DNA from: Cytobacillus kochii
GTDB lineage: Bacteria; Bacillota; Bacilli; Bacillales; Cytobacillaceae
NCBI RefSeq assembly: GCF_020171845.1
Contig: NZ_JAIVAM010000005.1
Coordinates: 124,001-188,000, forward strand
Reading direction: 5' to 3'
DNA length: 64,000 nt
The notes under the pieces were generated by a model. That model was given only the letters and a program-made list of their open reading frames with translations. It did no database searches and was not told the DNA's origin. Positions 11,081 to 54,252 of this stretch are shown piece after piece (the stretch's first letter is position 1; each line of letters opens with the position of its first letter). The translations under genes and the position numbers were made by a program.

Positions 11081-11643
11081 TTTTAGTAGGCATTTCGCGC
11101 ATGATTTGGCATGAGATTTCTTTTTTAGTAGGGCTTTTGCTCTTTTCACGACTTATCTTAGTTGGTTCTCCTTTTTTAGTCGCGTTTCTTGCCTTTTTGC
11201 GACTTATAAAGAGTTTCACTGCTTTTTTAGTCGCGTATTTGACCTTTTCGCGACTGATCATAGACGGTTCTCCTTTTTTAGTCGCGTTTCTTGCCTTTTT
11301 GCGACTTACAAAGAGTTTCACTGCTTTTTTAGTCGCGTATTTGACCTTTTCGCGACTGATCATAGTCGGCTCTCCTTTTTTAGTCGCGATTCTTGCCTTT
11401 TTGCGACTTATAAAGAGTTTCACTGCTTTTTTAGTCGCGTATTTGACCTTTTCACGACTTATCTTAGTTGGTTCTCCTTTTTCAGTCGCGATTCTTGCCT
11501 TTTTGCGACTTATAAAAAGTTTCACTGCTTTTTTAGTCGCGTATTTCCTCTTTTCACGACTTATCTTAGACGGTTCTCCTTTTTTAGTCTCGATTTTCCT
11601 CTTTTCGCGACTTATCAAGGACGGTTCACCTTTTTTAGTCGCA
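11081..11643. repeat. 51-bp tandem hairpin array A (about 10 units)
   Basis: Ten exact 51-bp periods run from 11123 to 11632, preceded by one degenerate 42-bp unit from 11081. Each unit has perfect or near-perfect arms AGTCGCG and CGCGACT (or AGTCGC/GCGACT) around a 12-15 base pyrimidine-rich loop, then a T/C-rich spacer. Two unit types alternate strictly (loop GTATTTGACC with a GGTTCTCC spacer, and loop GTTTCTTGCC with a GTTTCACTGC spacer), making a 102-bp higher-order repeat. Both strands are open for about 185-207 codons. On the minus strand GGAG is followed 8 bases later by ATG in several units. It lies between ywlC and mntP, which run in the same direction, and beyond the ywlC terminator. 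Confidence 0.95.
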
Positions 11644-11817
11644 CAAAATAAAAATGCTCCGCTAATAAGTAATACAATCGGAATATGATCATTTTACCCA
11701 CACAACTTACCGGATTTCTAATGAAATAGCACGCTATAGGAATCATTGAAAAAATCTTAGTAACCAACATTTGAGCTTCTGTTTTAGTTTTTAAGGTAAC
11801 AAGGGATAACAAATCAG

Positions 11818-11846
11818 AACCTGAACAATTTTCGTTCAGGTCCTGA
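11818..11846 (-). terminator. Probable terminator of ywlC
   Basis: CCTGAA/TTCAGG arms, extended to GAACCTGAA and TTCAGGTCC with mismatches, 25-50 bp past the ywlC stop. The following T-run is weak (TTCTGATTTG on the minus strand). Confidence 0.6.
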
Positions 11847-11867
11847 AACACTCATCTTTAAATCTAC

Positions 11868-12911
11868 TTATAATTGAATGCGCCGATGGCCTGCAGCTTT
11901 TTCTAAGCGATTCATAATCGCCACACCGACACCTTCATATGGGAAAACCTCACCTAAAATGATATCGACATTCTCATGATTAAATGCTCTCAAGGCATAG
12001 TATAAACCTGCAGCCACCGTATCTAGCGCTTCCCGCGCACCCATAGAAAGGACAACATCCGTTTCATAGAAATCTTTATTTTCATCTGTTGTCAGTACAC
12101 CTACTCGCAGTCCTTCTGCCCTTTTTTCATTGATCAATTGTTGCAACTGCATCGGAGTTGCATCGACTAATGTTAATGGTGCATCTGGTGCGTAATGTGT
12201 ATATTTCATACCAGGCGATTTTGGTTTGGCTTGTTGATTATGTAGCGCGGGATCTAATTTTACTTCACCTATCACCGCAATCATCTGTTCCTTGGTCACA
12301 CCACCCGGCCGTAAAATAACAGGTATCTCTTCTGTGCAATCAATAACGGTTGACTCCACACCAACGCCAGTAGCTCCTCCGTCTACCACACCAGCAATTT
12401 TTCCTTCTAAATCTTCCCACACGTGATCCGCTGTTGTTGGACTCGGTCTTCCCGAGCTATTTGCACTTGGAGCAGCTATTGGTAATTCCGTTTGGGCAAG
12501 AATGGCTAACGCTACAGGATGATCCGGCATACGGAAGCCAACGGTTTGTAATCCTGCTGTTGCTAAATCAGAAAGGCTACCCCTTTTTTTCTTAAGAATA
12601 ATCGTTAATGGTCCTGGCCAAAAGGCATCCATCAATTGCTCTGCCTTTAATGGAATCTCTTCAGCCAGTTCCTGCAGTTGCATTCTCTTTGCTATATGAA
12701 TAATTAAGGGATTATCTGCCGGCCTTCCTTTGGCAGCAAAAATTTTCTCTACGGCACCGTCACTTTTTGCATTCCCACCTAACCCATATACGGTTTCAGT
12801 TGGAAAAGCAACAACCTCATTTTCTTTAAGTAAATCAGAGGCTTGGACAATTTGTGGGTAACTATTCAAATTATCCACATTATTATCCACTGACCATCTA
12901 ATTGTTTTCAT
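11868..12911 (-). CDS. ywlC: L-threonylcarbamoyladenylate synthase (Sua5/YwlC)
   Basis: 347 residues, the long two-domain Sua5 form. The N-terminal YrdC domain (about 15-205) shows FPTETVYGLGGNA, KGRPADNPLIIHI, FWPGPLTIIL, VGFRMPDHPVA and PIAAPSANSSGRPSPT; the C-terminal Sua5 domain covers about 225-345 after the linker SPGMKYTHYAPDAPL. It makes threonylcarbamoyl-AMP from threonine, bicarbonate and ATP, the first step of t6A modification of ANN-decoding tRNAs. GGTGG precedes the ATG. An acetyltransferase-like gene lies upstream, as in B. subtilis. Confidence 0.95.
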   Translation of the reverse strand: MKTIRWSVDNNVDNLNSYPQIVQASDLLKENEVVAFPTETVYGLGGNAKSDGAVEKIFAAKGRPADNPLIIHIAKRMQLQELAEEIPLKAEQLMDAFWPGPLTIILKKKRGSLSDLATAGLQTVGFRMPDHPVALAILAQTELPIAAPSANSSGRPSPTTADHVWEDLEGKIAGVVDGGATGVGVESTVIDCTEEIPVILRPGGVTKEQMIAVIGEVKLDPALHNQQAKPKSPGMKYTHYAPDAPLTLVDATPMQLQQLINEKRAEGLRVGVLTTDENKDFYETDVVLSMGAREALDTVAAGLYYALRAFNHENVDIILGEVFPYEGVGVAIMNRLEKAAGHRRIQL

Positions 12912-13076
12912 TGTTATCCACCTTCAATATCTTTCATTCTAAATAGGAGAAATCCCCCTATTTTCAGTCTATCATCTAAGACAGTATAAAAGAAGCAAGG
13001 TGATAACTCAAGGTATTATCCACAAATTGTGAATAAACACATCGTTTTTGTGTATAACTTTGTGGATATATCCACA

Positions 13077-13529
13077 TTATTCGAGTGAATATTTCAAAAA
13101 GAAAGAGTTATCCACAGATTGGACATTTTTAATATGTTCTTTTTCTACTAAAAATGTTGGCAATTCCGATTTATCCACTTGTTGAAAACCCATTAATAAA
13201 AATAATTGTAGTGTACTTTTGCGATTTGATCCTAAATATACTGTGGATAACCCTTTTTCTTTTGCTAATAGAAAAATTTGTTGCAATAAATACAATAAAT
13301 CTGTCTGCACGGTTGTTTCTGACTTCATAACAAGCGAGCGTAACAAACCAACCGTTTCGTAAGGTTCGATGCCAATTGTCGCTTTTATTTCTCCCTCTTC
13401 ATCTTCCATAATTAAAAAGTAATCAATTAAGTCCGCCACACCTTCCGATCGAACTGACGCTTCTGTTAAAAATTTCATGAGCTCGTTTTCATCTTGCTTC
13501 TGTGCAACTCTTACAATACTTGTTTTCAT
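13077..13529 (-). CDS. GNAT-like acetyltransferase, YwlB-type
   Basis: 150 residues. The pattern (REAQKQDE-type start, ATIGIEPYETVGLLRSLVMKSE, then LLQQIFLLAKEKGLSTVYLGS and LFLLMGFQQVDKSELP) is that of a compact GNAT fold, with the acetyl-CoA binding region around the LLRSLVM strand. The substrate is unknown. Position between spoIIR and ywlC corresponds to B. subtilis ywlB, annotated as an N-acetyltransferase. GAGGGTG lies 6 bases before the ATG. Confidence in the family is moderate because the usual Q/RxxGxG/A motif is poorly conserved. Confidence 0.65.
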   Translation of the reverse strand: MKTSIVRVAQKQDENELMKFLTEASVRSEGVADLIDYFLIMEDEEGEIKATIGIEPYETVGLLRSLVMKSETTVQTDLLYLLQQIFLLAKEKGLSTVYLGSNRKSTLQLFLLMGFQQVDKSELPTFLVEKEHIKNVQSVDNSFFLKYSLE

Positions 13530-13614
13530 TCACTTCACCCTCTACTCATTTTATAGTCTATGAATATGAGTTAATTGAAATTGATAGAACTAAAAATTTG
13601 CTAGAGTTAAAATA

Positions 13615-14298
13615 TTATCCGAATAGCTTATCCCATATCTCTGCTAAAAAGAATTTTACTTCCACTTCTTCTTCATCTTGTTCACCTGCATAAACAGGGT
13701 CTTCTTCTTTTTCGGTCATTTCTTCCTCTACATTCTCTTCTTCCACTACTAATTCTTCCTCTTGCTGTTCTTCATCACTAAACCCTTCGCTCACAGCCAC
13801 ACCATTTGAAAAATCAAGAAAGCATAATGGTGGAAATAAAACACACCACCAGTTCGCACCGTCTCCATCACCAAGCGTAATTAGAATCGCTTCATACTCA
13901 CCAGCAGGGTATAAAAACTGGCCATAAAGTTTCGTCGGAAAATCTACTTTATCAAACTCCGTCTTAACTGTTTGTTTAGAGCCCGCTTCTGCTACAACTC
14001 GTTCGGCTATTTTTTGGATTTCTGGTAATTTTGATTGAATCAATGCTCTTGCTTCTTCTAAAGAGGTTAAATCAGATACCCACTCAGTTATATTTGCATT
14101 TACTTCGTCTCTCACCGCACGTTTAATCTTTTGATCTTTCTCCATATCGCTATTCGCTAGAATTCTTAAACGGATTGCTTCGTTAGGAATGACTAGTGAT
14201 TCATCAGCCACTACCTCTGTTTGCGGAATATATAAACTAAATAAAGTACCTAATGATAAAATTAAGATATATAAGTTCACAATCGATTTCGTTTTCAT
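13615..14298 (-). CDS. spoIIR: Stage II sporulation protein R
   Basis: 227 residues with an N-terminal signal or anchor segment (KSIVNLYILILSLGTLFSLYI) and the SpoIIR core IRLRILANSDMEKDQKIKRAVRDEV, FPTKLYGQFLYPAGEYEAILITLGDG and GANWWCVLFPPLCFLD. It is secreted from the forespore into the intermembrane space and activates SpoIIGA to process pro-SigE in the mother cell. Start 14298 has AGGGATGG about 9 bases upstream; a GTG at 14319 is the alternative. Near the end is an unusually long acidic stretch of about 38 residues rich in Glu before the terminal EVEVKFFLAEIWDKLF. A GTTTA-N17-CCACACTG element lies 28-57 bp upstream of the start. Confidence 0.92.
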   Translation of the reverse strand: MKTKSIVNLYILILSLGTLFSLYIPQTEVVADESLVIPNEAIRLRILANSDMEKDQKIKRAVRDEVNANITEWVSDLTSLEEARALIQSKLPEIQKIAERVVAEAGSKQTVKTEFDKVDFPTKLYGQFLYPAGEYEAILITLGDGDGANWWCVLFPPLCFLDFSNGVAVSEGFSDEEQQEEELVVEEENVEEEMTEKEEDPVYAGEQDEEEVEVKFFLAEIWDKLFG

Positions 14299-14492
14299 CT
14301 TCCTGCACCATCCCTTCACTATCCACAGTGTGGTCAGAAAGAGAACATCTTAAACTATTAAAATTAAAAAATTATAAAATAAGAAGGAAAGATAGACCCC
14401 ATTTAGATGGTAAACGGATTAAGTTAACATGTATCAAGCGTTACTATGTTAATAATCCATACATATGTCCATGGCGGGTCTTTTTTCTTTTA
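14299..14492. other. Upstream region of spoIIR
   Basis: No gene seen. It holds the candidate forespore promoter of spoIIR (14326-14355) and AT-rich DNA. Confidence 0.4.
14326..14355 (-). promoter_or_regulatory. Candidate forespore (SigF) promoter of spoIIR
   Basis: Minus strand GTTTA (14355-14351), 17-base spacer, CCACACTG (14333-14326). GTTTA fits the SigF -35 (GYWTA). The geometry equals that seen before rsfA and pbpG in this window, though the -10 is the weakest of the three. Transcription would start about 20 bases before the spoIIR ATG. Confidence 0.35.
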
Positions 14493-14675
14493 TAATGGGA
14501 GAAGCTTGCAGAAAATATCTTTGGGGGGTTTTTACATTTGTACCGCTGTTGGCTTTTTTACCTAGGACCGTTCATTTTGCAACGGTCTTACTCTTGGACG
14601 TTTCACCAAGTGCCGTCATTTTTCTTTTTCCACCGCGCTCTGTTCCTATTTCCTTACAGAGAGCGGTGGTTTTTA
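14493..14675 (+). ncRNA. Candidate small RNA with promoter -10 and terminator
   Basis: On the plus strand, against the flanking genes, TATAAT lies at about 14495-14500. It is followed by a G6 run, a perfect 7-bp hairpin GACCGTT/AACGGTC (near 14562-14585), and a strong hairpin from 14630 to 14669 (CCACCGC...TCTGT pairing with ACAGA...GCGGTGG) ending in TTTTT. That is a complete intrinsic terminator with no annotated plus-strand gene before it. No good -35 is visible. A 78-codon frame starting with TTG after the G-run is an alternative, but its aromatic-rich product is unlike a protein I recognise and it runs into prmC. Confidence 0.4.
14630..14675 (+). terminator. Strong plus-strand terminator between spoIIR and prmC
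   Basis: Fourteen-base arms with one mismatch (CCACCGCGCTCTGT / ACAGAGAGCGGTGG), then TTTTT. On the minus strand the hairpin would be followed by AAAAAG, so it acts on the plus strand only. Confidence 0.75.
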
Positions 14676-14730
14676 CACAGACACCATTTAACATTTCACT
14701 TAGTTCCTAATGATATAAACTCTCTTCACA

Positions 14731-15597
14731 TTAGTCACTTATTTCAGCGAAAACCATTCGATCTTTCCCGTTGATGTCAAAGACGACTTCGACCTGTGCT
14801 TGTGGGAGGGCACCTTTTAATAAGTTTGCGACCAATTCCCCTTGCCCTGCACCTACTTCAAATCCAACAAGTGCTTGTTCGTTTAGTACATGTGGTAATT
14901 CATTTACTAAACGGCGATAGATGTCTAAACCATCCTCTCCAGCAAACAAGGCACGATTAGGCTCATGTTCAGTTACAATCTCTGACATCCACGAACGATC
15001 TGCAGTTGGAATATAAGGGGGATTGGAGATAACTACATCTAATTTTACTCCAGAGTTGATAAAAGGCTGCAGCAAGTCCCCTACTATCCAATTTATGTCT
15101 GCGTCTAAATAAGCCCCATTACCCTTAGCTACTTCTAAACTTGCAGGATATAGATCAGTTCCAAAACAATCAAGCTGAGGGTTTTCTCGTTTCAGAGTAA
15201 TAGCGATTGCACCGCTACCTGTACCAACATCGGCCACTTTTAATCCTGTATCGTCTTGCCAACGTGCACGAATACGCTCAAGCGTAGCAAGGACTAACTC
15301 CTCTGTTTCTGGCCTAGGAATTAGAACTTCCTTATTCACCATAAATTTTCTACCATAAAACTCCTCATAGCCCATAATATACTGAATAGGCTCACCAGCA
15401 ATATGAGTGAGTATCGCCTTTGAAAAAAGTTGATCGATCTCCTCAGGAAGTTCTTCACGTAATCTTGTTAAGAATTCAGCTCGACTCATCTTCATATAAT
15501 GTCTTAGTAAAATTTCAGCAGCATATGCTTCCCGTTGATTTTCTTCTAAAAAAGAAGAAGCCCAGTTAAGGGCTTCGAATACTCTGCGATTACTCAT
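14731..15597 (-). CDS. prmC: Peptide chain release factor N5-glutamine methyltransferase
   Basis: 288 residues: an N-terminal helical domain (about 1-75), then a Rossmann SAM-dependent methyltransferase with [15 protein letters not shown] (motif I) and the catalytic SNPPYIP. It methylates the Gln of the GGQ motif in release factors. ATGAGTAA overlaps the prfA stop codon (8-base overlap), so the two are translationally coupled and the substrate is encoded directly upstream; a GTG nine bases earlier is an alternative start. In B. subtilis the same gene is ywkE. Confidence 0.95.
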
Positions 15598-16663
15598 TAG
15601 TCGCACTTTCTAGTTTAGCCGATTGCTCTTCTAAAATAAGAGCATCAATAATTTCATCAATCTTACCGTGTAGGATCTGGTCTAACTTTTGGATAGTTAA
15701 ACCAATTCGGTGATCAGTTACACGGTTTTGTGGGAAATTATACGTACGGATACGTTCAGAACGATCCCCTGTACCTACAGCTGATTTACGCTGCTGATCG
15801 TATTCAGCTTGTGCCTCTCGTTGGAATTTATCGTATACACGTGCACGCAAAACTTTCATCGCTTTTTCTTTGTTCTTAATTTGCGACTTTTCATCCTGAC
15901 AAGAAACGACAGTTCCCGTAGGAAGGTGGGTAAGTCTTACTGCGGACATAGTCGTATTAACACTTTGTCCACCCGGTCCACTAGAAGCAAAAGTATCCAC
16001 ACGGATATCCTTATCATGAAGCTCAATTTCCACTTCTTCTGCTTCAGGTAACACCGCTACTGTTGCCGTAGACGTATGAATGCGACCGCCTGATTCTGTT
16101 TCCGGTACACGTTGCACGCGATGCGCACCATTCTCATATTTTAATTTAGAGTAAGCACCGTTGCCGTTTACCATGAAGATAATTTCTTTATAGCCACCGA
16201 CCCCTGTACTACTTGCTTCAATGACGTCAATTTTCCAACCTTGGACTTCAGCATAGCGACTATACATACGGTACAAATCACCCGCAAACAGTGCAGCTTC
16301 ATCTCCACCAGCTGCACCACGAACTTCTACGATAACGTTTTTGTCATCATTAGGGTCCTTTGGAATGAGAAGGATTTTTAATTTTTCTTCTAATTGCTCC
16401 ACTTTTTCCTCTAATTCAGAAATCTCTTCTTTCACCATATCACGCATTTCAACATCTAGTTTCTCTTCCAACATGGCCTTTGCGTCTGTATATTGTTCAT
16501 GTATTTCTTTATATTCACGATATGTATCCACTGTTTCTTGGATATCAGACTGTTCTTTTGAATACTCACGTAATTTTTTTGGATCATTTACTATTTCTGG
16601 ATCACTAAGCAATTCATTAAGACGTTCATAGCGTTCCTCTACAGATTGAAGACGATCAAACAC
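15590..16663 (-). CDS. prfA: Peptide chain release factor 1
   Basis: 357 residues with an N-terminal coiled-coil domain (about 1-105), the codon-recognition region around [10 protein letters not shown], and the catalytic [10 protein letters not shown] loop. It recognises UAA and UAG and triggers peptidyl-tRNA hydrolysis. The start is a GTG (GTGTTTGATCG) with GAGGTG about 10 bases upstream. It overlaps prmC, whose product methylates its GGQ glutamine. Confidence 0.97.
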
Positions 16664-16879
16664 GGTTATTCACCTCTAATTCATTATTAACATGCATCTA
16701 TCTTATCACTGCTATCAGTATGCAGTTTCATTTCCAACGTATAACATTCTAATTATAGTATAGCCGCCTTGTTCAGTCAAAACCACTTTAGATTATTTTA
16801 GAAATTTCTGTTATTCGATTGATGAATCTTTCATCGTTTACTATAGTAAAGTTATCTACTTAAAAATGAGGTGCAGCAC

Positions 16880-17857
16880 ATGAAAGCCATTATGATTGGA
16901 ATACTCTCCGCATTCTTTTTTGCTTTTACATTTGTTTTAAATGCAGCTATGGAAATGAATGGAGGAAGCTGGTATTGGAGTGCATCGCTCCGTTACTTCT
17001 TTATGATCCCACTTTTACTTATCATTGTTTTATACCGTAAGAGCTTACGTGCACTTATGATTGAAATGAAAAAAGCCCCTGGAAAATGGATACTATGGAG
17101 CACAATTGGATTTGGGCTATTTTATGCCCCTATATGTTTTGCTGCTGCCTATGGTCCCGGCTGGCTAATTGCTGCCACCTGGCAAATCACAATTATTTCT
17201 GGCAGTCTACTTGCCCCATTATTTTATGAAATGCGCCAGACTTCTAAAGGAGTCATTCGCATAAAAGGGCAAATTCCTTTTAGAGGACTACTCATGAGTC
17301 TCATTATTTTAGTTGGCGTATTTGTTATCCAATGGGACCATGCCTCTGTTGTATCGGTGAAAGATACATTTATTTGCACCTTAGCCATTCTTATTGCATC
17401 GTTTGCTTACCCTCTAGGGAATCGAAAAATGATGGCCTTAACAAACAAGCGCTTAGATCCTTATCAAAGAGTGCTTGGTATGACAATAGCTAGCCTTCCC
17501 TTTTGGCTCTTACTTGCATTTATTGGTTTACAAACAGCTGGCATGCCATCGATGAGTCAAGTTTATCAATCGGGGTTAGTAGCCTTATTTTCCGGTGTTT
17601 TTGCAACAGTACTATTCTTTGCTGCCACCGATCTCGTTCAAGGCAACATGCAAAAACTTGGAGCTGTGGAGGCAACACAGTCCTTTGAAGTGCTTTTCGC
17701 AATGATTGGTGAAGTGATCATTTTATCTGCTCCTCTTCCTTCTGCCACTGCTACGGTTGGGATCAGTTTAGTAATACTCGGCATGGCACTTCATAGTTAT
17801 GTATCCAATTTACCTCAAAAGGGATTCAAAAAGAAAAAGGTAGAAGAGACGGTTTAA
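16880..17857 (+). CDS. Multidrug-resistance efflux (EmrE-like, 10-TM DMT) family transporter
   Basis: 325 residues, about ten hydrophobic segments beginning MKAIMIGILSAFFFAFTFVLNAAME. The sequence GGSWYWSASLRYFFMIPLL and the second-half VEATQSFEVLFAMIGEVIIL fit the PF13536-type transporters of the DMT superfamily. The substrate is unknown. It is one of the few plus-strand genes, divergent from prfA and convergent with the following lipoprotein gene, with which it shares a bidirectional terminator. GAGGTG lies 8 bases before ATG 16880; a GTG three codons earlier is an alternative. Confidence 0.75.
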   Translation: MKAIMIGILSAFFFAFTFVLNAAMEMNGGSWYWSASLRYFFMIPLLLIIVLYRKSLRALMIEMKKAPGKWILWSTIGFGLFYAPICFAAAYGPGWLIAATWQITIISGSLLAPLFYEMRQTSKGVIRIKGQIPFRGLLMSLIILVGVFVIQWDHASVVSVKDTFICTLAILIASFAYPLGNRKMMALTNKRLDPYQRVLGMTIASLPFWLLLAFIGLQTAGMPSMSQVYQSGLVALFSGVFATVLFFAATDLVQGNMQKLGAVEATQSFEVLFAMIGEVIILSAPLPSATATVGISLVILGMALHSYVSNLPQKGFKKKKVEETV

Positions 17858-19474: not shown

Positions 19475-19629
19475 TCTTTTCATCTCCTTCCGCCCTGAAT
19501 CATTCTGAAACAGAGTTATATAGTTACGGATTCACCGTAATCTTAGAAACGCACTGGAATCATTATAACAAGGTCGAGCTTAATTTGCAATCATCGATTA
19601 CGAATGAGCTTTACCATTTGATTCCAAAC

Positions 19630-26535: not shown

Positions 26536-26998
26536 TGAACGACATGCGGGCCTCTTTTGTAAAGCGCTCACCTTTGGTTTTCTCTCTGAGTGACTTGCAA
26601 ATCCCTTTTGCGAAGCGCTCACCTTTGGTTTTCTCTCTGAGTGGCTTGCAAACCCCTTTTGCGAAGCGCTCTCCTTTGGTTTTCTCTCTGAGTGACTTGC
26701 AAACCCCTTTTGCGAAGCGTTCTCCTTTGGTTTTCTCTCTGAGTGACTTGCAAACCCCTTTTGCGGAGCGCTCACCTTTGGTTTTCTCTCTGAGTGGCTT
26801 GCAAACCCCTTTTGCGAAGCGCTCACCTTTGGTTTTCTCTCTGAGTGACTTGCAAACCCCTTTTGCGAAGCGCTCACCTTTGGTTTTCTCTCTGAGTGAC
26901 TTGCAAATCCCTTTTGCGAAGCGCTCACCTTTGGTTTTCTCTCTGAGTGGCTTGCAAACCCCTTTTGCGAAGCGCTCACCTTTGGTTTTTCCTTCTGA
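26536..26998. repeat. 51-bp tandem hairpin array B (9 units)
   Basis: Nine contiguous 51-bp units start at 26536, 26587, 26638 and so on to 26944; the first is degenerate. Each contains TGAGTGACTTGCAAA pairing with TTTGCGAAGCGCTCA across a short CCCC(T) loop: 13 pairs (including G-T) and two mismatches. The 16-base spacer is CCTTTGGTTTTCTCTC. A single-base variant (GAGTGGCTTGC) recurs in every third unit, suggesting growth by 153-bp blocks. Both strands are open (177 and 159 codons) because 51 is divisible by three. The array fills the convergent gap between ywjG and pyrG and is bracketed by their terminators. Confidence 0.97.
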
Positions 26999-27095: not shown

Positions 27096-27130
27096 CAAAA
27101 AAAGGAAGAGATCCGGAAATCTCCTCCTTA
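27096..27130 (-). terminator. Terminator of pyrG
   Basis: AAGGAGGAGAT/ATCTCTTCCTT type hairpin with a short CCGGAA-type loop and TTTTTTT on the minus strand, just past the pyrG stop. Confidence 0.85.
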
Positions 27131-27137
27131 TAACAAT

Positions 27138-43744: not shown

Positions 43745-44370
43745 GGAGACATAACTTACGCGCAATTCTTCATCTCCTCCCTTTACCTTTTGCGTGCAAA
43801 CACGACTTACGCGCAATTCTTCTCCTTCTCCCTTTGTCTTTTGCGTGCAAACATAACTTACGCGCAATTCTTCATCTCCTCCCTTTACCTTTTGCGTGCA
43901 AACACGACTTACGCGCAATTTTTCTCCTTCTCCCTTTGTCTTTTGCGTGCAAACATAACTTACGCGCAATTCTTCATCTCCTCCCTTTGTCTTTTGCGCG
44001 CAAACAAGACTTACGCGCAATTTTTCTCCTTATCCCTTTGTCTTTTGCGCGCAAACATAACTTACGCGCAATTCTTCATCTCCCCCCTTTACCTTTTGCG
44101 TGCAAACACGACTTACGCGCAATTCCTCTCCTCCTCCCTTTACCTTTTGCGTGCAAACATAACTTACGCGCAATTCTTCTCCTCCTCGCTTTACCTTTTG
44201 CGCGCAAACACGACTTACGCGCAATTCTTCTCCTTCTCCCTTTGTCTTTTGCGTGCAAACATAACTTACGCGCAGTTCTTCATCTCCTCCCTTTACCTTT
44301 TGCGCGCAAACACGACTTACGCGCAATTCTTCTCCTTCTCCCTTTGCTTTTTGCACGCAAACACAACTTA
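43745..44370. repeat. 51-bp tandem hairpin array C (12 units)
   Basis: Twelve exact 51-bp units from 43754 to 44365, with partial copies at both ends. Each has TTACGCGCAA, a T/C tract of about 23 bases, and TTGCGTGCAA or TTGCGCGCAA. The arms pair as TTGCGTGCAA/TTACGCGCAA across a 7-base loop (ACACGAC, ACATAAC). Two unit types alternate without exception: ACATAACTTACG with a CATCTCC tract, and ACACGACTTACG with a CTCCTTC tract, so the real repeat is 102 bp. Open frames exist on both strands (268 and 193 codons plus, 118 and 108 minus). It fills the convergent uvsE/argS gap between both terminators. Confidence 0.97.
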
Positions 44371-44687: not shown

Positions 44688-44717
44688 AAAAGCGCCCACT
44701 ACATGAGTGGGACGCTT
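44683..44717 (-). terminator. Terminator of argS
   Basis: AAGCGCCCACT/AGTGGGACGCTT arms with a short ACATG loop, then TTTTTTTC on the minus strand, 13 bp past the argS stop. Confidence 0.88.
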
Positions 44718-47104: not shown

Positions 47105-47114
47105 CATCATCAAT

Positions 47115-47987
47115 TTATTTCACCCAACCTAAAATCATTTCACGAATAAGCTTACTAGCTGTATTGGCAGTTTGTTCTGATGGGTCATAAATGGGTGCCA
47201 CTTCAACTAGGTCACAGCCAACTACATTCACATTGGCACGAGCAATTTCATGAATAGAGGCTAAAAGCTCCTTAGAAGTAATGCCTCCAGCATCCACAGT
47301 ACCTGTACCCGGCGCATGTGCAGGATCAAGGACATCGATGTCAATTGTCACATAGACAGGACGACCAGCTAATTGTGGCAAAACTTCCTTCAAAGGTGCT
47401 AACACTTCAAATTTAGAAATATGCATCCCTACTTCTTTAGCCCATTGAAACTCTTCTTTCATACCAGAACGAATCCCAAATGAATAGACGTTTGTTGGAC
47501 CAATGAGATTAGCCGCCTTCTTGATTGGTGTGCTATGAGAAAGTGGTTCGCCTTCGTAATCGTCTCGTAAATCTGTATGTGCATCCATATGGATAATCGC
47601 TAAGTCAGGGTATTTCTTATACATCGCCTTTATGACTGGCCAGCTAACTAAATGCTCCCCACCCATACCAATAGGGAATTTATTATCTGCAAGTAGTCCG
47701 TCAATGTATTCCTCTATCATATCGATACTTTTTTGCGGGTTTCCAAATGGTAATGGAATATCTCCTGCATCGAAAAATTTCACTTCTTCTAGTTCCCGAT
47801 CTAAATAAGGGCTATACTCTTCAAGGCCGATGGACACTTCTCTTATTCTTGTTGGGCCGAATCTTGAACCAGGACGATAGCTGACTGTCCAGTCCATTGG
47901 CATCCCATAAATAACAGCACTGCTGTCTTCATAATGCGGATGACTTTTAATAAACACATTTCCTGAATAAGCTTCATCAAAACGCAT
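47115..47987 (-). CDS. speB: Agmatinase
   Basis: 290 residues. The ureohydrolase manganese ligands are in GMGGEHLVSWPV, IIHMDAHTDLRDDYEG and YVTIDIDVLDPAHAPGTGT. It hydrolyses agmatine to putrescine plus urea. GGAGG lies 8 bases before the ATG and overlaps the end of speE, 12 bp upstream; the pair forms the spermidine-synthesis operon as in B. subtilis. Confidence 0.95.
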   Translation of the reverse strand: MRFDEAYSGNVFIKSHPHYEDSSAVIYGMPMDWTVSYRPGSRFGPTRIREVSIGLEEYSPYLDRELEEVKFFDAGDIPLPFGNPQKSIDMIEEYIDGLLADNKFPIGMGGEHLVSWPVIKAMYKKYPDLAIIHMDAHTDLRDDYEGEPLSHSTPIKKAANLIGPTNVYSFGIRSGMKEEFQWAKEVGMHISKFEVLAPLKEVLPQLAGRPVYVTIDIDVLDPAHAPGTGTVDAGGITSKELLASIHEIARANVNVVGCDLVEVAPIYDPSEQTANTASKLIREMILGWVK

Positions 47988-47999
47988 AGAGAGTCCTCC

Positions 48000-48827
48000 T
48001 TATTCCACTAAATCTTGAACAAATTTTGGTAGTACAAATGCAGCCTGATGTAGTTCTTTTGTATAATATTTCGTCTCAATTTCGTGGAAACGCTCTTCTT
48101 CCACTTTTAGTGGATCGTGCTTTTTCGAACCGATAGTGAATGCCCATAATCCACTAGGATAAGTAGGGATATTCGCCACATACAGACGTGTAATTGGGAA
48201 AATTTCTTTTACATCCTTTTGAACATTGCGGATTAAGTCTGCTTTAAACCACGGATTATCTGACTGCGCTACGAATAAACCATCTTCCTTCAATGCTTTA
48301 GCAATACCTGCATAAAAACCTTTAGTAAATAAGTTAACTGCCGGACCCACTGGTTCTGTTGAATCGACCATAATAACGTCATATTCGTTTTCACTTTCAG
48401 CAATATGCATGAAGCCATCGCCCACTTTTACTTCTACACGCGGGTCTTCAAGCTTTCCTGCAATTTCTGGCAAGTACTTTTTCGAGAATTCAATAACCTT
48501 CCCATCAATATCTACAAGTGTCGCTTTTTTCACGCTAGGGTGCTTTAACACTTCACGAATAACGCCTCCGTCTCCACCACCGACAACGAGGATATTCTCA
48601 GGGTTTGGGTGAGTAAATAAAGGCACATGAGCGACCATTTCATGATAAACAAACTCATCCTTCACAGAAGTCATGACCATATCATCAAGAAGAAGCATAT
48701 TGCCCCACTCTTCTGTTTCTACCATGTCTAGCTTTTGAAAATCTGTCTGTTCCGTATGTAAAGTTCGATTCACCTTCATCGTGATACCGAAGTTCTCTGT
48801 TTGTTTTTCAGTAAACCAAATGCTCAT
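48000..48827 (-). CDS. speE: Spermidine synthase
   Basis: 275 residues. Decarboxylated-SAM-dependent aminopropyltransferase: [41 protein letters not shown] (nucleotide motif), [12 protein letters not shown] and the catalytic Asp in [13 protein letters not shown]. It adds an aminopropyl group to putrescine. GGATTG sits 8 bases before the ATG. It is the first gene of speE-speB and divergent from pbpG. Confidence 0.95.
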
Positions 48828-49246
48828 TATTCTTCAATCCTTTCTATTAAAAAAGTGCCTCATTTAACCTTATCGTTCCCGAAAAGCAAAATGACAAACA
48901 TGAGAAAAGTATAGAGGATTCTAGCAAAATTGCAAGTGAAAATTTTGTTAAAAAGAAGATACCCTTTAAAAAGAAGAGTGGGCTAATAGAATCTTCGCAC
49001 TCAGTCATTATGAAATCGGACCCGTCTTTGACTTTTTGGCTATATGATTGAACCGATTTAGATGTTTGCTGACCTGACTTTCTCTTTTATGTTCATGGCT
49101 TTGACTTTACTATTCATGTTTGACCCATTCCAGGGGTTTCATGCAGACTTTAGAGATTCGTGTAATCACAAATATGCATGTTTAAAATACCCTATAGTTT
49201 TCAATACTATATGTAAACGAAGCACATTAAAATGGGGGTGGTATAT
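48828..49246. other. Divergent intergenic region speE/pbpG
   Basis: No gene supported; a 65-codon plus-strand frame at 49062 lacks an RBS. It holds the candidate forespore promoter of pbpG at 49180-49209. Confidence 0.45.
49180..49209 (+). promoter_or_regulatory. Candidate forespore (SigF/SigG) promoter of pbpG
   Basis: GTTTA (49180-49184), 17-base spacer, CAATACTA (49202-49209). The element before rsfA (GTATA-N17-CAATCCTA) has the same spacing and words. The -35 fits SigF (GYWTA); the -10 region resembles the SigG -10 (CATNNTA) with one extra base. pbpG is SigF-dependent in B. subtilis. Confidence 0.5.
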
Positions 49247-51325
49247 GTGGAAATCATGACAAATCAGCGCTTTAGAAATGCAGGTAAATATTTGCGAGCA
49301 CTCGTCATTTGTAGCTTAATAGGTTCAGCGTTAGTGGTCTGCCTGCTCATCGGTATTTTCATTTATGCCAAAATTTTAGGTCCACCACCACTTGCCGTAC
49401 CACAATCCACTTTATATATGGCAAGTGACGAATCTATTATTGGTGAAAGTCACACAGGGGAGAAAAGGTATTGGGCAGATATTACTGATATTTCCCCAGA
49501 TTTAATTCATGCGACGATCGCGATTGAGGACCAGAGTTTCTATGAACATCATGGCTTTGATTATAAAAGAATTGCTGGCGCCTTGCTGGCAGACCTAAAA
49601 GCAATGGCAAAGGTACAAGGTGCGAGTACAATTAGTCAGCAATACGCTAAAAACCTTTTTCTCGATCAAGATAAAACGTGGACAAGGAAAATAAAAGAAG
49701 CGTTTTATACCCTAAGAATAGAAATGAGTTACACAAAAGAGCAAATACTAGAAGGCTATTTAAATACAATCTATTACGGTAACAGGGCTTACGGTGCACA
49801 AGCAGCTAGTCAGTTTTATTTTGGAAAAGATGCAGCTGATTTAACTTTAGCCGAATCCGCTATGCTCGCAGGTATTCCGAAAGGACCAAGTGCCTATTCA
49901 CCTCTTGCCTCATTCGAGAAAGCGAAACAAAGACAAAAGTTAATCTTAACTTCTATGGTAGGGAATCAATATATTACGAAAAAGGAAATGGTAAATGCTT
50001 TTAATGAAGAGCTTACTTTCGTTGGTGAGCATCAATATTACGTGAACACTGTTGCCCCCTACTTTCAGGATGCAGTCAAAGCTGTACTAAAATCTCAATT
50101 AGACCTTGATGAAAGAATGGTTGAACTTGGTGGATTACGAGTTTACACAACACTAGATCGCCAAAAACAAGAGATAGCAGAGAAAACAATTGAAGAAGTG
50201 ATGACAGAAGATACTTCAATGCAAGTCGGGCTCGTATCAATGAATCCTAAAAATGGACATGTAGAAGCCATGGTTGGAGGTACAGATTATGAAGAGAGCT
50301 CATTTAATAGAGCTTTACAAGCGATTAGACAGCCTGGATCTACGATGAAGCCCCTTTTATATTACGCGGCCATTAAACAAGGATTTACACCAGTATCAAC
50401 AGTAATGAGCAAACCTACTACTTTTCGGTTTGACGATGGACAATCAACATATGCACCTCATAATTATAATAATAAGTATGCAGATGGAGATATAACGATG
50501 GCGCAGGCACTAGCGCTCTCGGATAATATATATGCCGTGAAAACCCACCTTTTTTTAGGTGAAGAAACGCTCGTTAAGACCGCTAAAGATTTTGGTATTC
50601 AGTCTAAGATGGCCAAAGTCCCTTCACTCGCCCTGGGTACATCCGGATTAAGAGTAACAGAGCTTGCCAATGCATACAGCATGTTGGCTAATGGTGGGAA
50701 GCGTACTGACCCTGTTTTTATAACAAGAGTTGAGGATTATAAAGGCGATGTCCTTTACGAGGCTAAGGGATCAAATGAGCAAGTATTAGATAAGGATACA
50801 GCCTTTGTCGTGACAGAGATGATGACGGGCATTTTTGATCAGACATTAAATGGTTATGCTAGTGTGACTGGATCTACTATTAGCGATCAACTCACAAGAC
50901 CATACGCAGCAAAATCTGGTTCGACGGAGACTGATAGCTGGATGGCTGGATTCTCTCCCCAGCTCGTTACTGCTGTATGGACAGGTTACGATGATAATCA
51001 AACGATCGACCTTGTGAAGGAAAAGGCGTTTGCAAAGGAAATTTGGGGGAATTATATGGAAGATGCCCACCAGGGACTTCCAATTCGCCAGTTCACACCA
51101 ACAAAGAATACAGTAGGCGTTTATGTTGAACCTTCCACTGGCAAACTAGCAACAGAAAATTGCCCTGCCAAACGTCTTACCTACTTTATTAAGGGAACCG
51201 AACCAACTGAATACTGTTCGCTTCACCTGCCTGAATACCATGCAGAGGAAAAACAAATAGAGAAAGAGCCAGCCCCTAAGGAGAAAAAGCCTTGGTACAA
51301 GAAGATATTACCATGGACTTCATAA
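49247..51325 (+). CDS. pbpG: Class A penicillin-binding protein, PbpG type
   Basis: 692 residues. Short cytoplasmic N-terminus and membrane anchor (about 18-42), a glycosyltransferase domain (IAIEDQSFYEHHGFDYKRI, GASTISQQYAKNLFL, GYLNTIYYGN) and a transpeptidase domain with the SxxK motif in RQPGSTMKPLLYY, SxN in ALSDNIYAVK and KSGST in AAKSGSTETDSW. The C-terminus is Lys/Pro-rich. It makes spore-cortex-related peptidoglycan in the forespore. The start is GTG 49247, 5 bases after GGGGGTGG; the ATG three codons later is too far from the RBS. Divergent from speE, as in B. subtilis. Confidence 0.92.
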   Translation: MEIMTNQRFRNAGKYLRALVICSLIGSALVVCLLIGIFIYAKILGPPPLAVPQSTLYMASDESIIGESHTGEKRYWADITDISPDLIHATIAIEDQSFYEHHGFDYKRIAGALLADLKAMAKVQGASTISQQYAKNLFLDQDKTWTRKIKEAFYTLRIEMSYTKEQILEGYLNTIYYGNRAYGAQAASQFYFGKDAADLTLAESAMLAGIPKGPSAYSPLASFEKAKQRQKLILTSMVGNQYITKKEMVNAFNEELTFVGEHQYYVNTVAPYFQDAVKAVLKSQLDLDERMVELGGLRVYTTLDRQKQEIAEKTIEEVMTEDTSMQVGLVSMNPKNGHVEAMVGGTDYEESSFNRALQAIRQPGSTMKPLLYYAAIKQGFTPVSTVMSKPTTFRFDDGQSTYAPHNYNNKYADGDITMAQALALSDNIYAVKTHLFLGEETLVKTAKDFGIQSKMAKVPSLALGTSGLRVTELANAYSMLANGGKRTDPVFITRVEDYKGDVLYEAKGSNEQVLDKDTAFVVTEMMTGIFDQTLNGYASVTGSTISDQLTRPYAAKSGSTETDSWMAGFSPQLVTAVWTGYDDNQTIDLVKEKAFAKEIWGNYMEDAHQGLPIRQFTPTKNTVGVYVEPSTGKLATENCPAKRLTYFIKGTEPTEYCSLHLPEYHAEEKQIEKEPAPKEKKPWYKKILPWTS

Positions 51326-51360
51326 TTCGCACACAAACATGACAATAGTAGAAATAATGA

Positions 51361-51390
51361 AAAACCTCGACAGTAGCTGCCGAGGTTTTT
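51361..51390 (+). terminator. Terminator of pbpG (bidirectional)
   Basis: AAAACCTCG/CGAGGTTTT arms with an 11-base loop, followed by T on the plus strand, 35 bp after the stop. Confidence 0.85.
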
Positions 51391-51520
51391 CGTGTCCTAG
51401 TTCTATACAGTGCTTCGCACTAATATTAAGTTTACTTTTTTTATCCACTTGAAGCAATACTTTGTAAATTCCTTCAATAAACTGTCACAAATACGCCACA
51501 ATTATGGCTGAATTTGTCTC

Positions 51521-52027
51521 TTATGCTTGCAAATCTGTTTTTAGTTGTTCTGATGATCTCTCCCACATACCTGCATCATAATCTTGTAGGAATTTTGCTA
51601 ATACTTCTTTAGATGAAACATCCATATGATCCACGATTACTTGACCTTTAATTGATTTATCCATTCGATTCACATGTTCAGGAAGTGACTTATACCCTCT
51701 TCTAATTGATCGATCAACTGTAAACTCACAAGCTGTTACACCCGCATAATACGTACCTTCTTCCCCACGTTCTACCGTTACCCAGATTAACCAGTACGGC
51801 TTTCCATTAGGGACTTCTTCTTTTGTCTTTAAAAACTTAATGCCTTTTTCCTGTGGGCTGCGGGCATGCATTGCCCCAACCTCGATTGAAGCCTCTTTTT
51901 CATTGACATCTATAATAACCGGCGAAACATTATCTAAACTAAAAGCACCGGCCCCGAATCCACCATGCCCCTCGGTTGGGTCACTTTTAATAATATTAAA
52001 CTCCATTTTTTTCTTATTCTCTGCCAT
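51521..52027 (-). CDS. ywhD: YwhD-family protein
   Basis: 168 residues. It shows the family blocks FNIIKSDPTEGHGGFGAGAFSLDNVSPVIID, VGAMHARSPQEKGIKFL, YWLIWVTVERGEEGTYYAGVTAC and GYKSLPEHVNRMDKSIKG. Function unknown. ATG 52027 has GGAGGAG 8 bases upstream, and that RBS overlaps the end of ywhC, so the two are coupled. Confidence 0.88.
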   Translation of the reverse strand: MAENKKKMEFNIIKSDPTEGHGGFGAGAFSLDNVSPVIIDVNEKEASIEVGAMHARSPQEKGIKFLKTKEEVPNGKPYWLIWVTVERGEEGTYYAGVTACEFTVDRSIRRGYKSLPEHVNRMDKSIKGQVIVDHMDVSSKEVLAKFLQDYDAGMWERSSEQLKTDLQA

Positions 52028-52045
52028 TTGAAACTCCTCCTTCAT

Positions 52046-52702
52046 CTATGATCTCACAAATAATGTATAAAAGAATGCGCTTAGGTTTTCCATAATCGCT
52101 GGAAGTAATGTATTCAGGATAGGGCTAATCGTATATTGACTGAGCGGTGTAATCACAAGGATGAGAAAAATAAGACCTCCATAATTCTCAATTGACGTCA
52201 TCTTCGCTCGCCAATCATTTGGTACTAAATCTGCAATCACCCGATAGCCATCTAAAGGCGGCAAAGGGATTAAATTAAATATGAAAAGAAGCATATTTAG
52301 ACCAATAAAAATATTGAGAAACGCGAGCAACGACTCCGGCACTGTATAACCATTTCCAATTAACCAATACCATAAACCTAAAGCAAATGTAGCCAAAACA
52401 AAATTACTCAATGGACCAGCTAAAGAAACACATACACCAGCAAGCCTCGGATTTTTAAAAAAGAAGCGGTTAACAGGGACTGGTCTCGCCCACCCAAAAC
52501 CCGCTATAAAAATTAAGAGTGTCCCAATTGGATCTAAATGACTAATGGGATTCAACGTCAATCTGCCTTGATTTTTTGCCGTTGGATCACCAAATTTATA
52601 GGCGACCCACGCATGTGCAAGCTCATGAAGAGTGAAGGCAATAATTAACGTGATAGCTACATAGGGAATATCCCTAAGTGGATAGGCTAAGAATTGTTCC
52701 AC
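52046..52702 (-). CDS. ywhC: Site-2 protease-family membrane metallopeptidase (YwhC)
   Basis: 218 residues, about six membrane segments. The zinc site HELAH (His26, Glu27, His30) follows FTL in the first segment; the third ligand Asp is in NLIPLPPLDGYRV. This is the short M50 type without a PDZ domain; its substrate is unknown. The start is GTG with GGGGAT upstream. It immediately precedes ywhD. Confidence 0.9.
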   Translation of the reverse strand: MEQFLAYPLRDIPYVAITLIIAFTLHELAHAWVAYKFGDPTAKNQGRLTLNPISHLDPIGTLLIFIAGFGWARPVPVNRFFFKNPRLAGVCVSLAGPLSNFVLATFALGLWYWLIGNGYTVPESLLAFLNIFIGLNMLLFIFNLIPLPPLDGYRVIADLVPNDWRAKMTSIENYGGLIFLILVITPLSQYTISPILNTLLPAIMENLSAFFYTLFVRS

Positions 52703-52924
52703 ACTTTAATCCCCTTTTTTAACTCATGAATGAGTGTTTTATACCTTTTCATTAACCATATGTAAACCTTATCTTTGTCATACATATTAAAGTATAACGC
52801 ATCATTCCTGCAATAAGGAAATCATGCGCTACTATAAATTTGCTTGTCTAAATGAAGAAAATATGGAAAACTTAAAATAATCGTTGTTCAGAAACAGCGC
52901 GAATTCATTTAGGAGGAAGAACTT

Positions 52925-53110
52925 ATGCCATACGTAACTGTTAAAATGCTTGAAGGACGTACAGAAGATCAAAAGAAAGCACTCGTAGAAAAAGTCACAG
53001 TAGCCGTGAGCGAAACAACAGGTGCTCCAAATGAAAAAATCACTGTATTTATAGAAGAAATGAGCAAGAACCATTACGCTGTTGGTGGCAAGCGTCTGAG
53101 CGACCAATAA
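52925..53110 (+). CDS. ywhB: 4-oxalocrotonate tautomerase family protein (YwhB)
   Basis: 61 residues starting MPYVTVKMLEGRTEDQKKAL, so Pro1 (after Met removal) is the catalytic base; Arg11 is kept. The sequence is near the B. subtilis YwhB. It should tautomerise enol acids in vitro; its physiological role is unclear. AGGAGG is 8 bases before the ATG. It is divergent from ywhC and ends at a hairpin before array D. Confidence 0.93.
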   Translation: MPYVTVKMLEGRTEDQKKALVEKVTVAVSETTGAPNEKITVFIEEMSKNHYAVGGKRLSDQ

Positions 53111-53130
53111 AATACAAGATTGAAATATAT

Positions 53131-53173
53131 CGGCACTGACAATGTTAGTTATTCGTTGGTGCCGGTTATTTTT
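53131..53173 (+). terminator. Terminator of ywhB
   Basis: CGGCACTGA / TTGGTGCCG hairpin with imperfect centre, then TTATTTTTTTG, 20 bp beyond the stop. Confidence 0.75.
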
Positions 53174-53523
53174 TTGTGTTCCTGGTGAATTCCTTTATGT
53201 ACGATTCTCTATTGTTCTTGTACACTATTATTGATTTTGCCTAGGTTCTTCATATCAGAATTTCCTCTCGAATCCTTTTTTTCACTCATTTTCGGCCGAA
53301 TCCAATCAAATTTTCGCTCCGCCTTCCGGATCCCATTAGATTTAAGAGAACTACGCAATTCTGAGGGAAATACAACGTTTTCTTTTCAGACATGAAGAAA
53401 CTTCCCAGGGTGAGGATAAGCCGGAACAAATTAAATTTTATACGCGTAAGTAAGAGCGTAAAAATACAGCATGAGATATGTGTATTTTTACGGTTTAGTT
53501 GCGCTCTCATCTTCATTTTTTTC
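53174..53523. other. Non-coding gap before array D with decayed repeats
   Basis: Around 53285-53345 two copies of a roughly 32-bp word occur (GAATCCAATCAAATTTTCG and GATCCCATTAGATTT, read in a minus frame as NLMGSGRRSE and NLIGFGRKMSE). At 53457-53492 a perfect 12-bp inverted repeat CGTAAAAATACA/TGTATTTTTACG flanks a 12-base loop. No gene with an RBS is visible. Confidence 0.5.
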
Positions 53524-54252
53524 TGAGTGACTCGCAAACTTCATTTATGAAGCGCTCAGCTCCTTTTCTCTTTCTGAGTGACTCACAAACCTCAGCTGCG
53601 AAGCGATCATTCTCTTTACTCCTACTGAGTGACTCGCAAACCTCATTTGCGAAGCGCTCAGTTCCTTTTCTCTTTCTGAGTGACTCACAAACCTCAGCTG
53701 CGAAGCGCTCATTCTCTTTTCTCACCTTGAGTGACTCGCAAACCTCATTTGCGAAGCGCTCATTCTCTTTTCTCACCTTGAGTGACTCGCATACTTCATT
53801 TGCGAAGCACTCATTCTCTTTTCTCACCTTGAGTGACTCACAAACTTCATTTACAAAGCGCTCATTCTCTTTTCTCACCTTGAGTGACTCACAAACTTCT
53901 TTTGCGAAGCGCTCATTCTCTTTTCTCACCTTGAGTGACTCGCAAACCTCATTTGCGAAGCGCTCAGCTCCTTTTCTCTTTCTGAGTGACTCACAAACTT
54001 CATTTACAAAGCGCTCATTCTCTTTTCTCACCTTGAGTGACTCACAAACTTCATTTGCGAAAACTCATTCTCTTTTCTCACCTTGATTGACTCACAAACT
54101 TCATTTGCGAAGCACTCATTCTCTTTTCTCACCTTGAGTGACTCGCATACCTCATTGGCGAAGCGCTCATTCTCTTTTCTCCCACTGAGTGACTCACAAA
54201 CCTCATTTGCGAAGCACTCAGTTCCTTTTCTCTTTCTGAGTGACTCACAAAC
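53524..54252. repeat. 51-bp tandem hairpin array D (14-15 units)
   Basis: Fourteen units from 53524 to 54236 plus a partial one; all are 51 bp except unit 11, which lost one base (near 54060). The core is TGAGTGACTCGCAAA pairing with TTTGCGAAGCGCTCA over a 5-base loop (CCTCA, CTTCA): the same fold as array B, with C-G where B has T-G. Two spacers are mixed, TTCTCTTTTCTCACCT and GCTCCTTTTCTCTTTC. Some arms carry TCACAAA and TTTACAAAG, a paired (compensating) change in at least two units. It lies between convergent ywhB and ywgA. Confidence 0.97.

What the first reader, a model, noticed from the sequence alone, without database searches (positions are those of the whole stretch)
11081..54252. 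Four tandem arrays with unlike sequences but an identical 51-bp period
Arrays A (11081-11643), B (26536-26998), C (43745-44370) and D (53524-54252) have 9-15 units each. A, C and the B/D pair share no obvious sequence, yet every array has exactly 51-bp units, one imperfect hairpin per unit, and T/C-rich spacers on the plus strand. Shared length without shared sequence implies that the period and fold are maintained, by a copying mechanism or a binding partner that counts 51 bp. Gaps between arrays are about 10-17 kb, so many copies could exist genome-wide. I know of no description of this class.
Basis: partly seen in the sequence, partly recalled or inferred. Interest (0 to 1): 0.85.

Follow-up and report, generated by a model that had tools for sequence, protein, structure and literature searches.

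The report
Known fixed-length satellites between Bacillus genes
These are non-coding DNA repeats of one fixed length but many different sequences, a class already described in Bacillus without a known function; the new clues are that the length is close to five turns of the DNA helix and that the repeats nearly always point the same way relative to DNA replication.

Summary
Four arrays of exactly 51-bp units lie at about the stated places; A, C and B/D are three unlike sequence families. The period is genome-wide: all 14 distinct non-coding arrays of the 50-53-bp class with at least four units in 669 kb of the own genome are 51 bp. But the class is in print: Subirana and Messeguer 2021 (PMC8161180) describe it in Bacillus (51-53 and 20-21 nt, constant size, unlike sequence, function unknown).

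Not found in what I could read of that work:
- this species and C. stercorigallinarum are fixed at 51 (40 of 40 class entries) against 52 in sampled relatives (30 of 32);
- the purine-rich strand is the leading strand in 74 of 76 entries, and 0 of 60 classified arrays lie between divergent genes;
- indels per substitution are about six-fold lower than in ordinary intergenic DNA;
- over 40 family representatives A/T content oscillates five times per unit, the helical repeat, though in this window only array A shows it strongly.

Best reading, partly inference: DNA shaped as whole helical turns for a wrapping protein. RNA-level and purely mutational readings stay open. The hairpin is a class tendency, not present in every family.

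The parts
11120..11642 (-). Array A: 10.3 units of 51 bp, 102-bp higher-order unit; purine-rich (leading) strand is minus; between two minus-strand genes
   Evidence: A/T power at 5 cycles per unit 4.77
26554..26989 (-). Array B: 8.5 units of 51 bp; downstream of pyrG, between convergent genes; same family as D
   Evidence: A/T power at 5 cycles 0.26
43749..44370 (-). Array C: 12.2 units of 51 bp, 102-bp higher-order unit; between convergent uvsE and argS
   Evidence: A/T power at 5 cycles 1.17
53524..54253 (-). Array D: 14.3 units of 51 bp; between two minus-strand genes; same family as B
   Evidence: A/T power at 5 cycles 0.63
11813..11846 (-). Terminator-like hairpin between the upstream leading-strand gene (11868-12911) and array A
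   Evidence: simple finder; coordinates worked out from its offsets
27099..27131 (-). Terminator-like hairpin between pyrG and array B
   Evidence: simple finder; coordinates worked out from its offsets
44690..44713 (-). Bulged terminator-like hairpin between argS and array C
   Evidence: by eye; the finder reported none here
54354..54379 (-). Terminator-like hairpin between the upstream leading-strand gene (54362-54874) and array D
   Evidence: simple finder; coordinates worked out from its offsets

Best explanation
The four arrays are members of the published 51-53-nt non-coding satellite class of Bacillus relatives. Shown here: the length of the unit rather than its sequence is kept; arrays come and go between sister species; 59 of 60 classified arrays lie downstream of a leading-strand gene and none between divergent genes; over many families A/T content is phased with the helix, with a whole number of turns per unit (5 for 51-53 bp, 2 for 20-21, 4 for 40-42). 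Inferred: the unit works as double-stranded DNA, as a run of whole helical turns whose A/T-rich grooves face one side, so that a DNA-wrapping protein can bind repeatedly in register. The partner I think likeliest is DNA gyrase, or else a nucleoid protein, acting where positive supercoils gather behind and between transcription units, much as E. coli BIME-2 elements do. Arrays would grow and shrink by unequal exchange or slippage, and out-of-register units would be lost because they break the helical register. The leading-strand purine polarity is a further constraint that this model does not explain.
For: Class membership: against PMC8161180. Length constraint: own arrays 36 indels to 2070 substitutions (0.017), sister species 13 to 383 (0.034), relatives 34 to 1464 (0.023), against 133 to 1211 (0.110) in 77 ordinary intergenic segments; Fisher P 6e-27 for own arrays (units of an array are not independent). 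A/T power at 5 cycles per unit averages 2.63 over 40 family representatives, against 1.02 in 500 shuffle rounds (z 10.4), 1.20 in 7040 intergenic windows and 0.59-1.16 at the other harmonics 1-12. In 32 arrays of 20-21 bp harmonic 2 is highest (10.8; next 4.3), in 11 arrays of 40-42 bp harmonic 4 (8.5; harmonic 2 5.7) (families not thinned, no shuffles for these). Later-fetched stretches: 4 arrays of 51-52 bp have harmonic 5 first of eight (3) or second (1). A/T at phase peaks is substituted less (ratio 0.62, 0.46-0.81). Context 30 convergent, 29 co-directional leading, 1 co-directional lagging, 0 divergent, against control gaps 219, 694, 91, 314. Gyrase: E. coli motif with 47-bp flanks of 10.75-bp GC periodicity, 35-52-bp fragments wrapped on GyrA CTDs, BIME-2 as transcription-independent gyrase sites (PMC6379681, passages).
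Against: In this window only A shows strong phasing (4.77); C 1.17, D 0.63 and B 0.26 do not, and B/D is the largest family found (18 arrays). In the 13 representatives of the 51-bp clade harmonic 5 averages 2.19 but is top in only 2. Substitution damping at phase peaks is not fully specific: 6 and 7 cycles give 0.74 and 0.80, and the reverse change shows no clear effect (0.88, 0.74-1.05). One of two 21-bp arrays fetched later has harmonic 1, not 2, on top. The strand polarity (74 of 76) and purine spacers are not foretold by a double-stranded model. The uniform 51 of one clade, within the tolerance of five turns, is not explained. No binding data exist here.
Confidence: 0.4

Rival explanations
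1. RNA-level: arrays are transcribed in the leading-strand direction as chains of hairpins joined by single-stranded purine-rich linkers, acting as a sponge or scaffold for an RNA-binding protein or as a regulatory RNA.
For: Purine-rich strand is the leading strand in 74 of 76 entries and 59 of 60 classified arrays follow a leading-strand gene. Purines 0.773 in spacers, 0.526 in arms (arrays with stem P<=0.2). G-T exceeds A-C at stem pairs on that strand, 206 to 156, where non-stem rates foretell 404 to 419; 37 arrays to 21. Stem positions diverge less than the rest. B. coagulans satellites are reported transcribed (PMC8161180; PMC8625621 passages).
Against: A terminator-like hairpin separates gene and array in 33 of 59 by a simple finder. 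No compensatory changes within arrays beyond permutation (4 against 4.8 own; 4 against 2.8 relatives). Stem P<=0.05 in only 1 of 9 own families. No Rfam match on any array of the window. RNA gives no clear reason for helical A/T phasing of DNA.
Confidence: 0.25
2. Purely mutational or selfish satellites: replication slippage and unequal exchange make and homogenise arrays, and the fixed length is inherited as arrays seed each other; no function.
For: Rapid turnover between sister species; a lone unit-like stretch at three of seven array-less sites. The B/D family at 18 places. Higher-order units. Within a sampled clade the period is uniform, as spread from one founder length would give.
Against: Indels are about six-fold rarer per substitution than in ordinary intergenic DNA. 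Purine bias far exceeds fourfold-site bias (0.522-0.540). Helical A/T phasing in unrelated families. No divergent contexts (0 of 60). Few lone units outside arrays (5 places against 0-2 with shuffled queries in own genome).
Confidence: 0.25
3. Coding: 51 bp is 17 codons, so the arrays encode 17-residue repeat proteins.
For: Long ORFs cross each array of the window. Purine-strand consensus frames are open more often than in shuffles, 63 of 123 against 44.0 (sd 4.3) (18 of the 41 arrays are one family).
Against: Relatives' arrays are mostly 52 bp, not a multiple of three. 25 of 41 arrays of the 51-bp clade have no purine-strand frame open throughout, 15 of 41 none on the other strand, and substitutions show no codon-position pattern (0.442 against 0.452 permuted).
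Confidence: 0.02
4. REP/RAYT-type elements: hairpins spread by an IS200/IS605-like Y1 transposase.
For: Inverted repeats in extragenic, dispersed families.
Against: No Y1_Tnp (PF01797) match in the own genome, while the control search rings in 5 of 14 well-known genomes. Few lone units. Many families without a significant stem.
Confidence: 0.02
5. Polar motifs for a DNA translocase (SRS/KOPS for SpoIIIE or FtsK).
For: Strict leading-strand polarity.
Against: The recalled B. subtilis SRS octamer occurs once on the purine strand of 76 arrays, 3.7 expected from shuffles.
Confidence: 0.03

Closest known systems
51-53-nt ('52 nt') tandem repeats of Bacillus, Subirana and Messeguer 2021 (PMC8161180)
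   Same: Non-coding, constant unit size, unlike sequences within a genome, species-specific families, partial conservation between strains, several units per array.
   Different: Here the whole sampled clade is at 51 rather than 52. Strand polarity, gene context, indel constraint and helical phasing were not in the text I read.
20-21-nt tandem repeats of Bacillus (same paper)
   Same: Also found in the relatives sampled (31 entries). They show the same helical A/T phasing, at harmonic 2, and sit in like contexts (27 co-directional leading, 10 convergent, 1 divergent).
   Different: Two turns instead of five; weaker purine polarity (31 of 43).
E. coli BIME-2/REP elements as gyrase sites (PMC6379681, passages)
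   Same: Extragenic inverted repeats; A/T-GC periodicity near the helical repeat in the gyrase motif.
   Different: No Y1 transposase here; no sequence likeness tested; gyrase binding unknown here.
Leptospira interrogans non-coding satellites (PMC6749651)
   Same: Dispersed non-coding satellite families in a bacterium.
   Different: Several sizes there (37, 46, 69 nt in its Table 2), not one size for unlike sequences.

Membership tests
51-53-nt satellite class of Bacillus (PMC8161180) | Unit of 51-53 nt, at least four units | tested here: met
   A-D 51 bp, 8.5-14.3 units
51-53-nt satellite class of Bacillus (PMC8161180) | Same size but unlike sequences within one genome | tested here: met
   13 clusters at 65% identity in 41 array entries of two sister genomes
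51-53-nt satellite class of Bacillus (PMC8161180) | Non-coding | tested here: met
   one contrary sign, an excess of open purine-strand frames
51-53-nt satellite class of Bacillus (PMC8161180) | Species-specific sequences | tested here: met
   B family: 0 of 30 other genomes matched at E<=0.001; lone unit-like remains in C. stercorigallinarum
51-53-nt satellite class of Bacillus (PMC8161180) | Short sequence and its reverse complement in the same unit | tested here: inconclusive
   stem P<=0.05 in 7 of 34 own entries, 21 of 37 in relatives
51-53-nt satellite class of Bacillus (PMC8161180) | Partial conservation of arrays between close genomes | tested here: met
   3 of 10 comparable own arrays have an array at the site in C. 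stercorigallinarum; species, not strains
REP/BIME with RAYT | Y1 transposase in the genome | tested here: not met
   PF01797 0 matches in own genome
REP/BIME with RAYT | Gyrase binding | not testable with these tools
   needs ChIP-seq or Topo-Seq
CRISPR | Unique spacers between constant repeats | tested here: not met
   spacers are shared by the units of an array
CRISPR | cas genes | not tested
   not searched

The most novel reading that the evidence does not exclude
The two satellite size classes of Bacillus relatives (20-21/40-42 and 51-53 bp) are one thing: runs of whole helical turns (2, 4 or 5) with A/T grooves phased to one face, laid on the leading strand behind transcription units as shape-coded, sequence-free landing arrays for a DNA-wrapping enzyme such as gyrase. 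A clade-wide 51 instead of 52 would reflect a change in the partner's geometry or in the effective helical pitch of that chromosome.
Probability: 0.25. Interest if true: 0.8.

Novelty: new member of a known kind. Interest (0 to 1): 0.5.

Why it matters
The class is in print with its central puzzle open: why a constant length without a constant sequence. Helical phasing, strand polarity, avoidance of divergent gaps and the indel constraint turn the puzzle into testable claims. They also give a cheap test (harmonic 5 or 2 of A/T content; purine strand against GC skew) for the 4029 arrays catalogued in PMC8161180. A clade at 51 against 52 elsewhere is a natural experiment on what sets the length.

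Tried and rejected
Coding, REP/RAYT and the SRS octamer are given under rivals. Known RNA family: the only Rfam hit in the window at gathering threshold is an L31 leader at 19484-19515. One shared binding motif over 13 cluster representatives: only purine-tract words pass the shuffle level (GAAAA in 10, 95% level 8; CTTTTC in 6, level 5). Compensatory change within arrays: none beyond permutation. One ancestor for all own families: between-cluster identities average 0.454 against 0.434 for shuffled pairs, with 4.7% above the shuffled 99% level, and the 13 clusters merge to 8 at 60%, so weak kinship of some is not excluded.

Caveats. The 15 stretches were chosen by likeness to B/D, so that family is over-represented; the genome-wide statement rests on the other 33 sources, one of which is the window itself (14 distinct arrays with it, 10 without it). 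One array is split over L209 and L210 and counted twice in the figures 33, 34, 40, 41 and 76. 'Non-coding' and gene contexts come from mechanical ORFs of at least 100 codons; one 51-bp array of C. stercorigallinarum and one each of 51 and 52 bp in relatives were flagged as inside ORFs and left out of the non-coding counts. 16 of 76 entries had no context call. My array caller needs a steady period, which could hide arrays with many indels; the TRF rows show none of size. The intergenic control dropped segments differing by over 30 bp or under 75% identity, which lowers its indel count, so it errs against my reading. Arrays of one family are not independent in the orientation and context counts. 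The two exceptions to polarity are L057 6381-6728 (own) and L115 4359-4578 (relative). The one lagging-context array (L210 13642) keeps the leading polarity, though skew and gene balance disagree in that stretch. Short-read assemblies may lose or break arrays; several stretches at contig ends begin or end in arrays (L058, L063, L150, L158, L219).

Literature seen. PMC8161180: main text parts 1-4 of 5. PMC6749651: parts 1-3 of 5. PMC8625621, PMC6379681, PMC12393610: found passages only. The J Bacteriol 2020 paper of the same authors is not held. That phasing, polarity and context are not in print is judged from these readings and from searches only. Supplements were not read.
Full report
What is there. 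TRF finds four arrays with 51-bp units at 11120-11642, 26554-26989, 43749-44370 and 53524-54253, close to the stated coordinates. The window is contig 5, 124001-188000, of a 4.97-Mb genome in 46 contigs. The best of 80 kept named loci for its argS (98% identity) is Cytobacillus stercorigallinarum. Genome G015 is taken to be that species because its contig 38 has the same length, 221372, as the named record. Flanking genes above their NCBIfam cut-offs are an L-threonylcarbamoyladenylate synthase (A), pyrG (B), and uvsE and argS (C); the other flanking genes have weak matches or none. B and D are one family; A and C are others.

How far it reaches. In 33 sources of the own genome (the window, 20 stretches at round coordinates and the rest of contig 5; 669 kb) there are 15 entries, 14 distinct arrays, of period 51 with at least four units. 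The other non-coding arrays are single cases of 12, 27, 41 and 127 bp. By extrapolation that is about 80 (without the window) to 105 arrays per genome. With 15 more stretches chosen around B/D-like hits, 33 of 35 non-coding entries of at least four units are 51. In C. stercorigallinarum 7 of 8 are 51 and one is 27. In relatives (79 of 80 argS loci, 20 pyrG loci, and 17 stretches of B. infantis and Neobacillus cucumis; L066 left out as a duplicate of G015) the 50-53 class has 30 of 52, one of 51 and one of 53; 31 entries are 20-21 bp, two 41, one 18 and one 60.

Prior art. Subirana and Messeguer 2021 (PMC8161180, parts 1-4 of 5) describe this class in 176 Bacillus genomes: 1886 arrays of 51-53 nt and 781 of 20-21 nt, constant size, species-specific unlike sequences, only partial conservation between strains, function unknown. 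They discuss a nucleoid protein lattice or RNA and note that 20-21 nt is two helical turns. Their 2019 survey (PMC6749651, parts 1-3) reports families of long-unit non-coding satellites in bacteria only for Leptospira interrogans.

Length is constrained, sequence is not. Own arrays (443 units) carry 2070 substitutions and 36 indels against their consensus, 0.017 indels per substitution; the sister 0.034, relatives 0.023. Ordinary intergenic segments between the sisters (77 segments, 7.2% divergence) give 133 indels to 1211 substitutions, 0.110; Fisher P 6e-27 against own arrays.

Turnover. Of 14 arrays on contig 5, ten can be compared with G015 contig 38 by their flanks; one lies beside a large indel and three beyond the aligned part. 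At seven sites the sister has no array; at three of these (B, D and the array at contig 5 87601) a lone unit-like stretch is left. At three sites both have arrays: one pair is of one cluster, two pairs (site A and contig 5 59792) are of different clusters but both 51 bp.

Orientation and place. The purine-rich strand is the leading strand, by GC skew outside the array, in 33 of 34 own, 7 of 7 sister and 34 of 35 relative entries. Arrays average 0.656 purine on that strand, against 0.517 in 776 array-free gaps, 2% of which reach 0.6. The bias lies in the spacers (0.773) rather than the arms (0.526), and fourfold sites give only 0.522 and 0.540. Of 60 entries with a context call, 30 are convergent, 29 co-directional leading, 1 co-directional lagging and 0 divergent; control gaps are 219, 694, 91 and 314. 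A terminator-like hairpin lies between the upstream leading-strand gene and the array in 33 of 59; the simple finder missed the bulged one of argS, seen by eye.

Hairpin. Inverted repeats exceed shuffles on average (5.9 against 4.8 own, 6.0 against 4.6 sister, 7.9 against 4.9 relatives), but P<=0.05 is reached in 7 of 34, 3 of 8 and 21 of 37 entries (the sister and relative sets include three ORF-flagged arrays) and in 1 of 9, 0 of 4 and 17 of 27 family representatives. Arms diverge less than the rest (0.071 against 0.108 own; 0.051 against 0.122 relatives) without compensatory change inside arrays. Between two own arrays (L047, and L061 at 2084) both arms differ together while the loop is kept, a single suggestive case read.

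Helical phasing. 51-53 bp is close to five turns, 20-21 to two, 40-42 to four. For 40 family representatives, normalised A/T power at five cycles per unit is 2.63, against 1.02 in shuffles (z 10.4), 1.20 in 7040 intergenic windows and 0.59-1.16 at the other eleven harmonics; harmonic 5 is top of twelve in 15 of 40. Harmonic 2 is highest in the 20-21-bp arrays (32) and harmonic 4 in the 40-42-bp arrays (11), as the idea foretells. Twenty stretches from ten congeners, fetched after the idea was noted, hold four arrays of 51-52 bp: harmonic 5 is first of eight in three and second in one, and the purine strand is leading in four of four. Of two 21-bp arrays, harmonic 2 is first in one. Against this, in this window A has 4.77 but C 1.17, D 0.63 and B 0.26, and in the 13 representatives of the 51-bp clade harmonic 5 is top in only two (mean 2.19). 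A/T at phase peaks is substituted less (0.62, 0.46-0.81), but six and seven cycles also fall below 1.

How it may work. Shown: fixed length, drifting sequence, turnover, polarity, absence from divergent gaps and phasing as a class property. Inferred: selection on double-stranded DNA shape, whole turns with A/T grooves on one face, for a wrapping protein. Gyrase fits best among those I considered. Its E. coli motif has 47-bp flanks with GC content periodic at 10.75 bp, 35-52-bp fragments are thought to wrap its C-terminal domains, and BIME-2 elements behave as transcription-independent gyrase sites (PMC6379681, passages); a 2025 preprint restates the motif (PMC12393610, passages). That positive supercoils gather downstream of and between convergent transcription units is established knowledge, not tested here. 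Weak points are B/D without phasing, the unexplained polarity and the uniform 51. The RNA reading explains polarity, purine spacers and the G-T excess at stems (206 to 156) better, and the period and phasing worse.

Verdict. A real feature, correctly seen, of a published class; a new member fixed at 51 bp, with added evidence on what keeps the length.

Noticed in passing
window 61439-61819: Three near-identical 127-bp units (99% matches), kin to a dispersed element: 10 matches in the own genome; a like 125/312-bp tandem of 14 units stands in congener G016 (L171 2314-6945).
   Followed up: partly
window 19484-19515: L31-Firmicutes ribosomal protein leader, minus strand (Rfam RF03156).
   Followed up: no
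L210 3091-3250 and L190 1894-2107: A 27-bp array on contig 5 of the own genome and on contig 38 of C. stercorigallinarum, seemingly at matching places; it may be coding.
   Followed up: no
L057 6381-6728: One B/D-family array with the purine-rich strand on the lagging side, the only such own-genome case of 34; a natural inversion to compare.
   Followed up: no
L094 14664-14940 and L095 14664-14881: Nearly the same 52-bp unit at the same place downstream of argS in records named Robertmurraya siralis and Bacillus methanolicus: either a kept array or a misnamed record.
   Followed up: no
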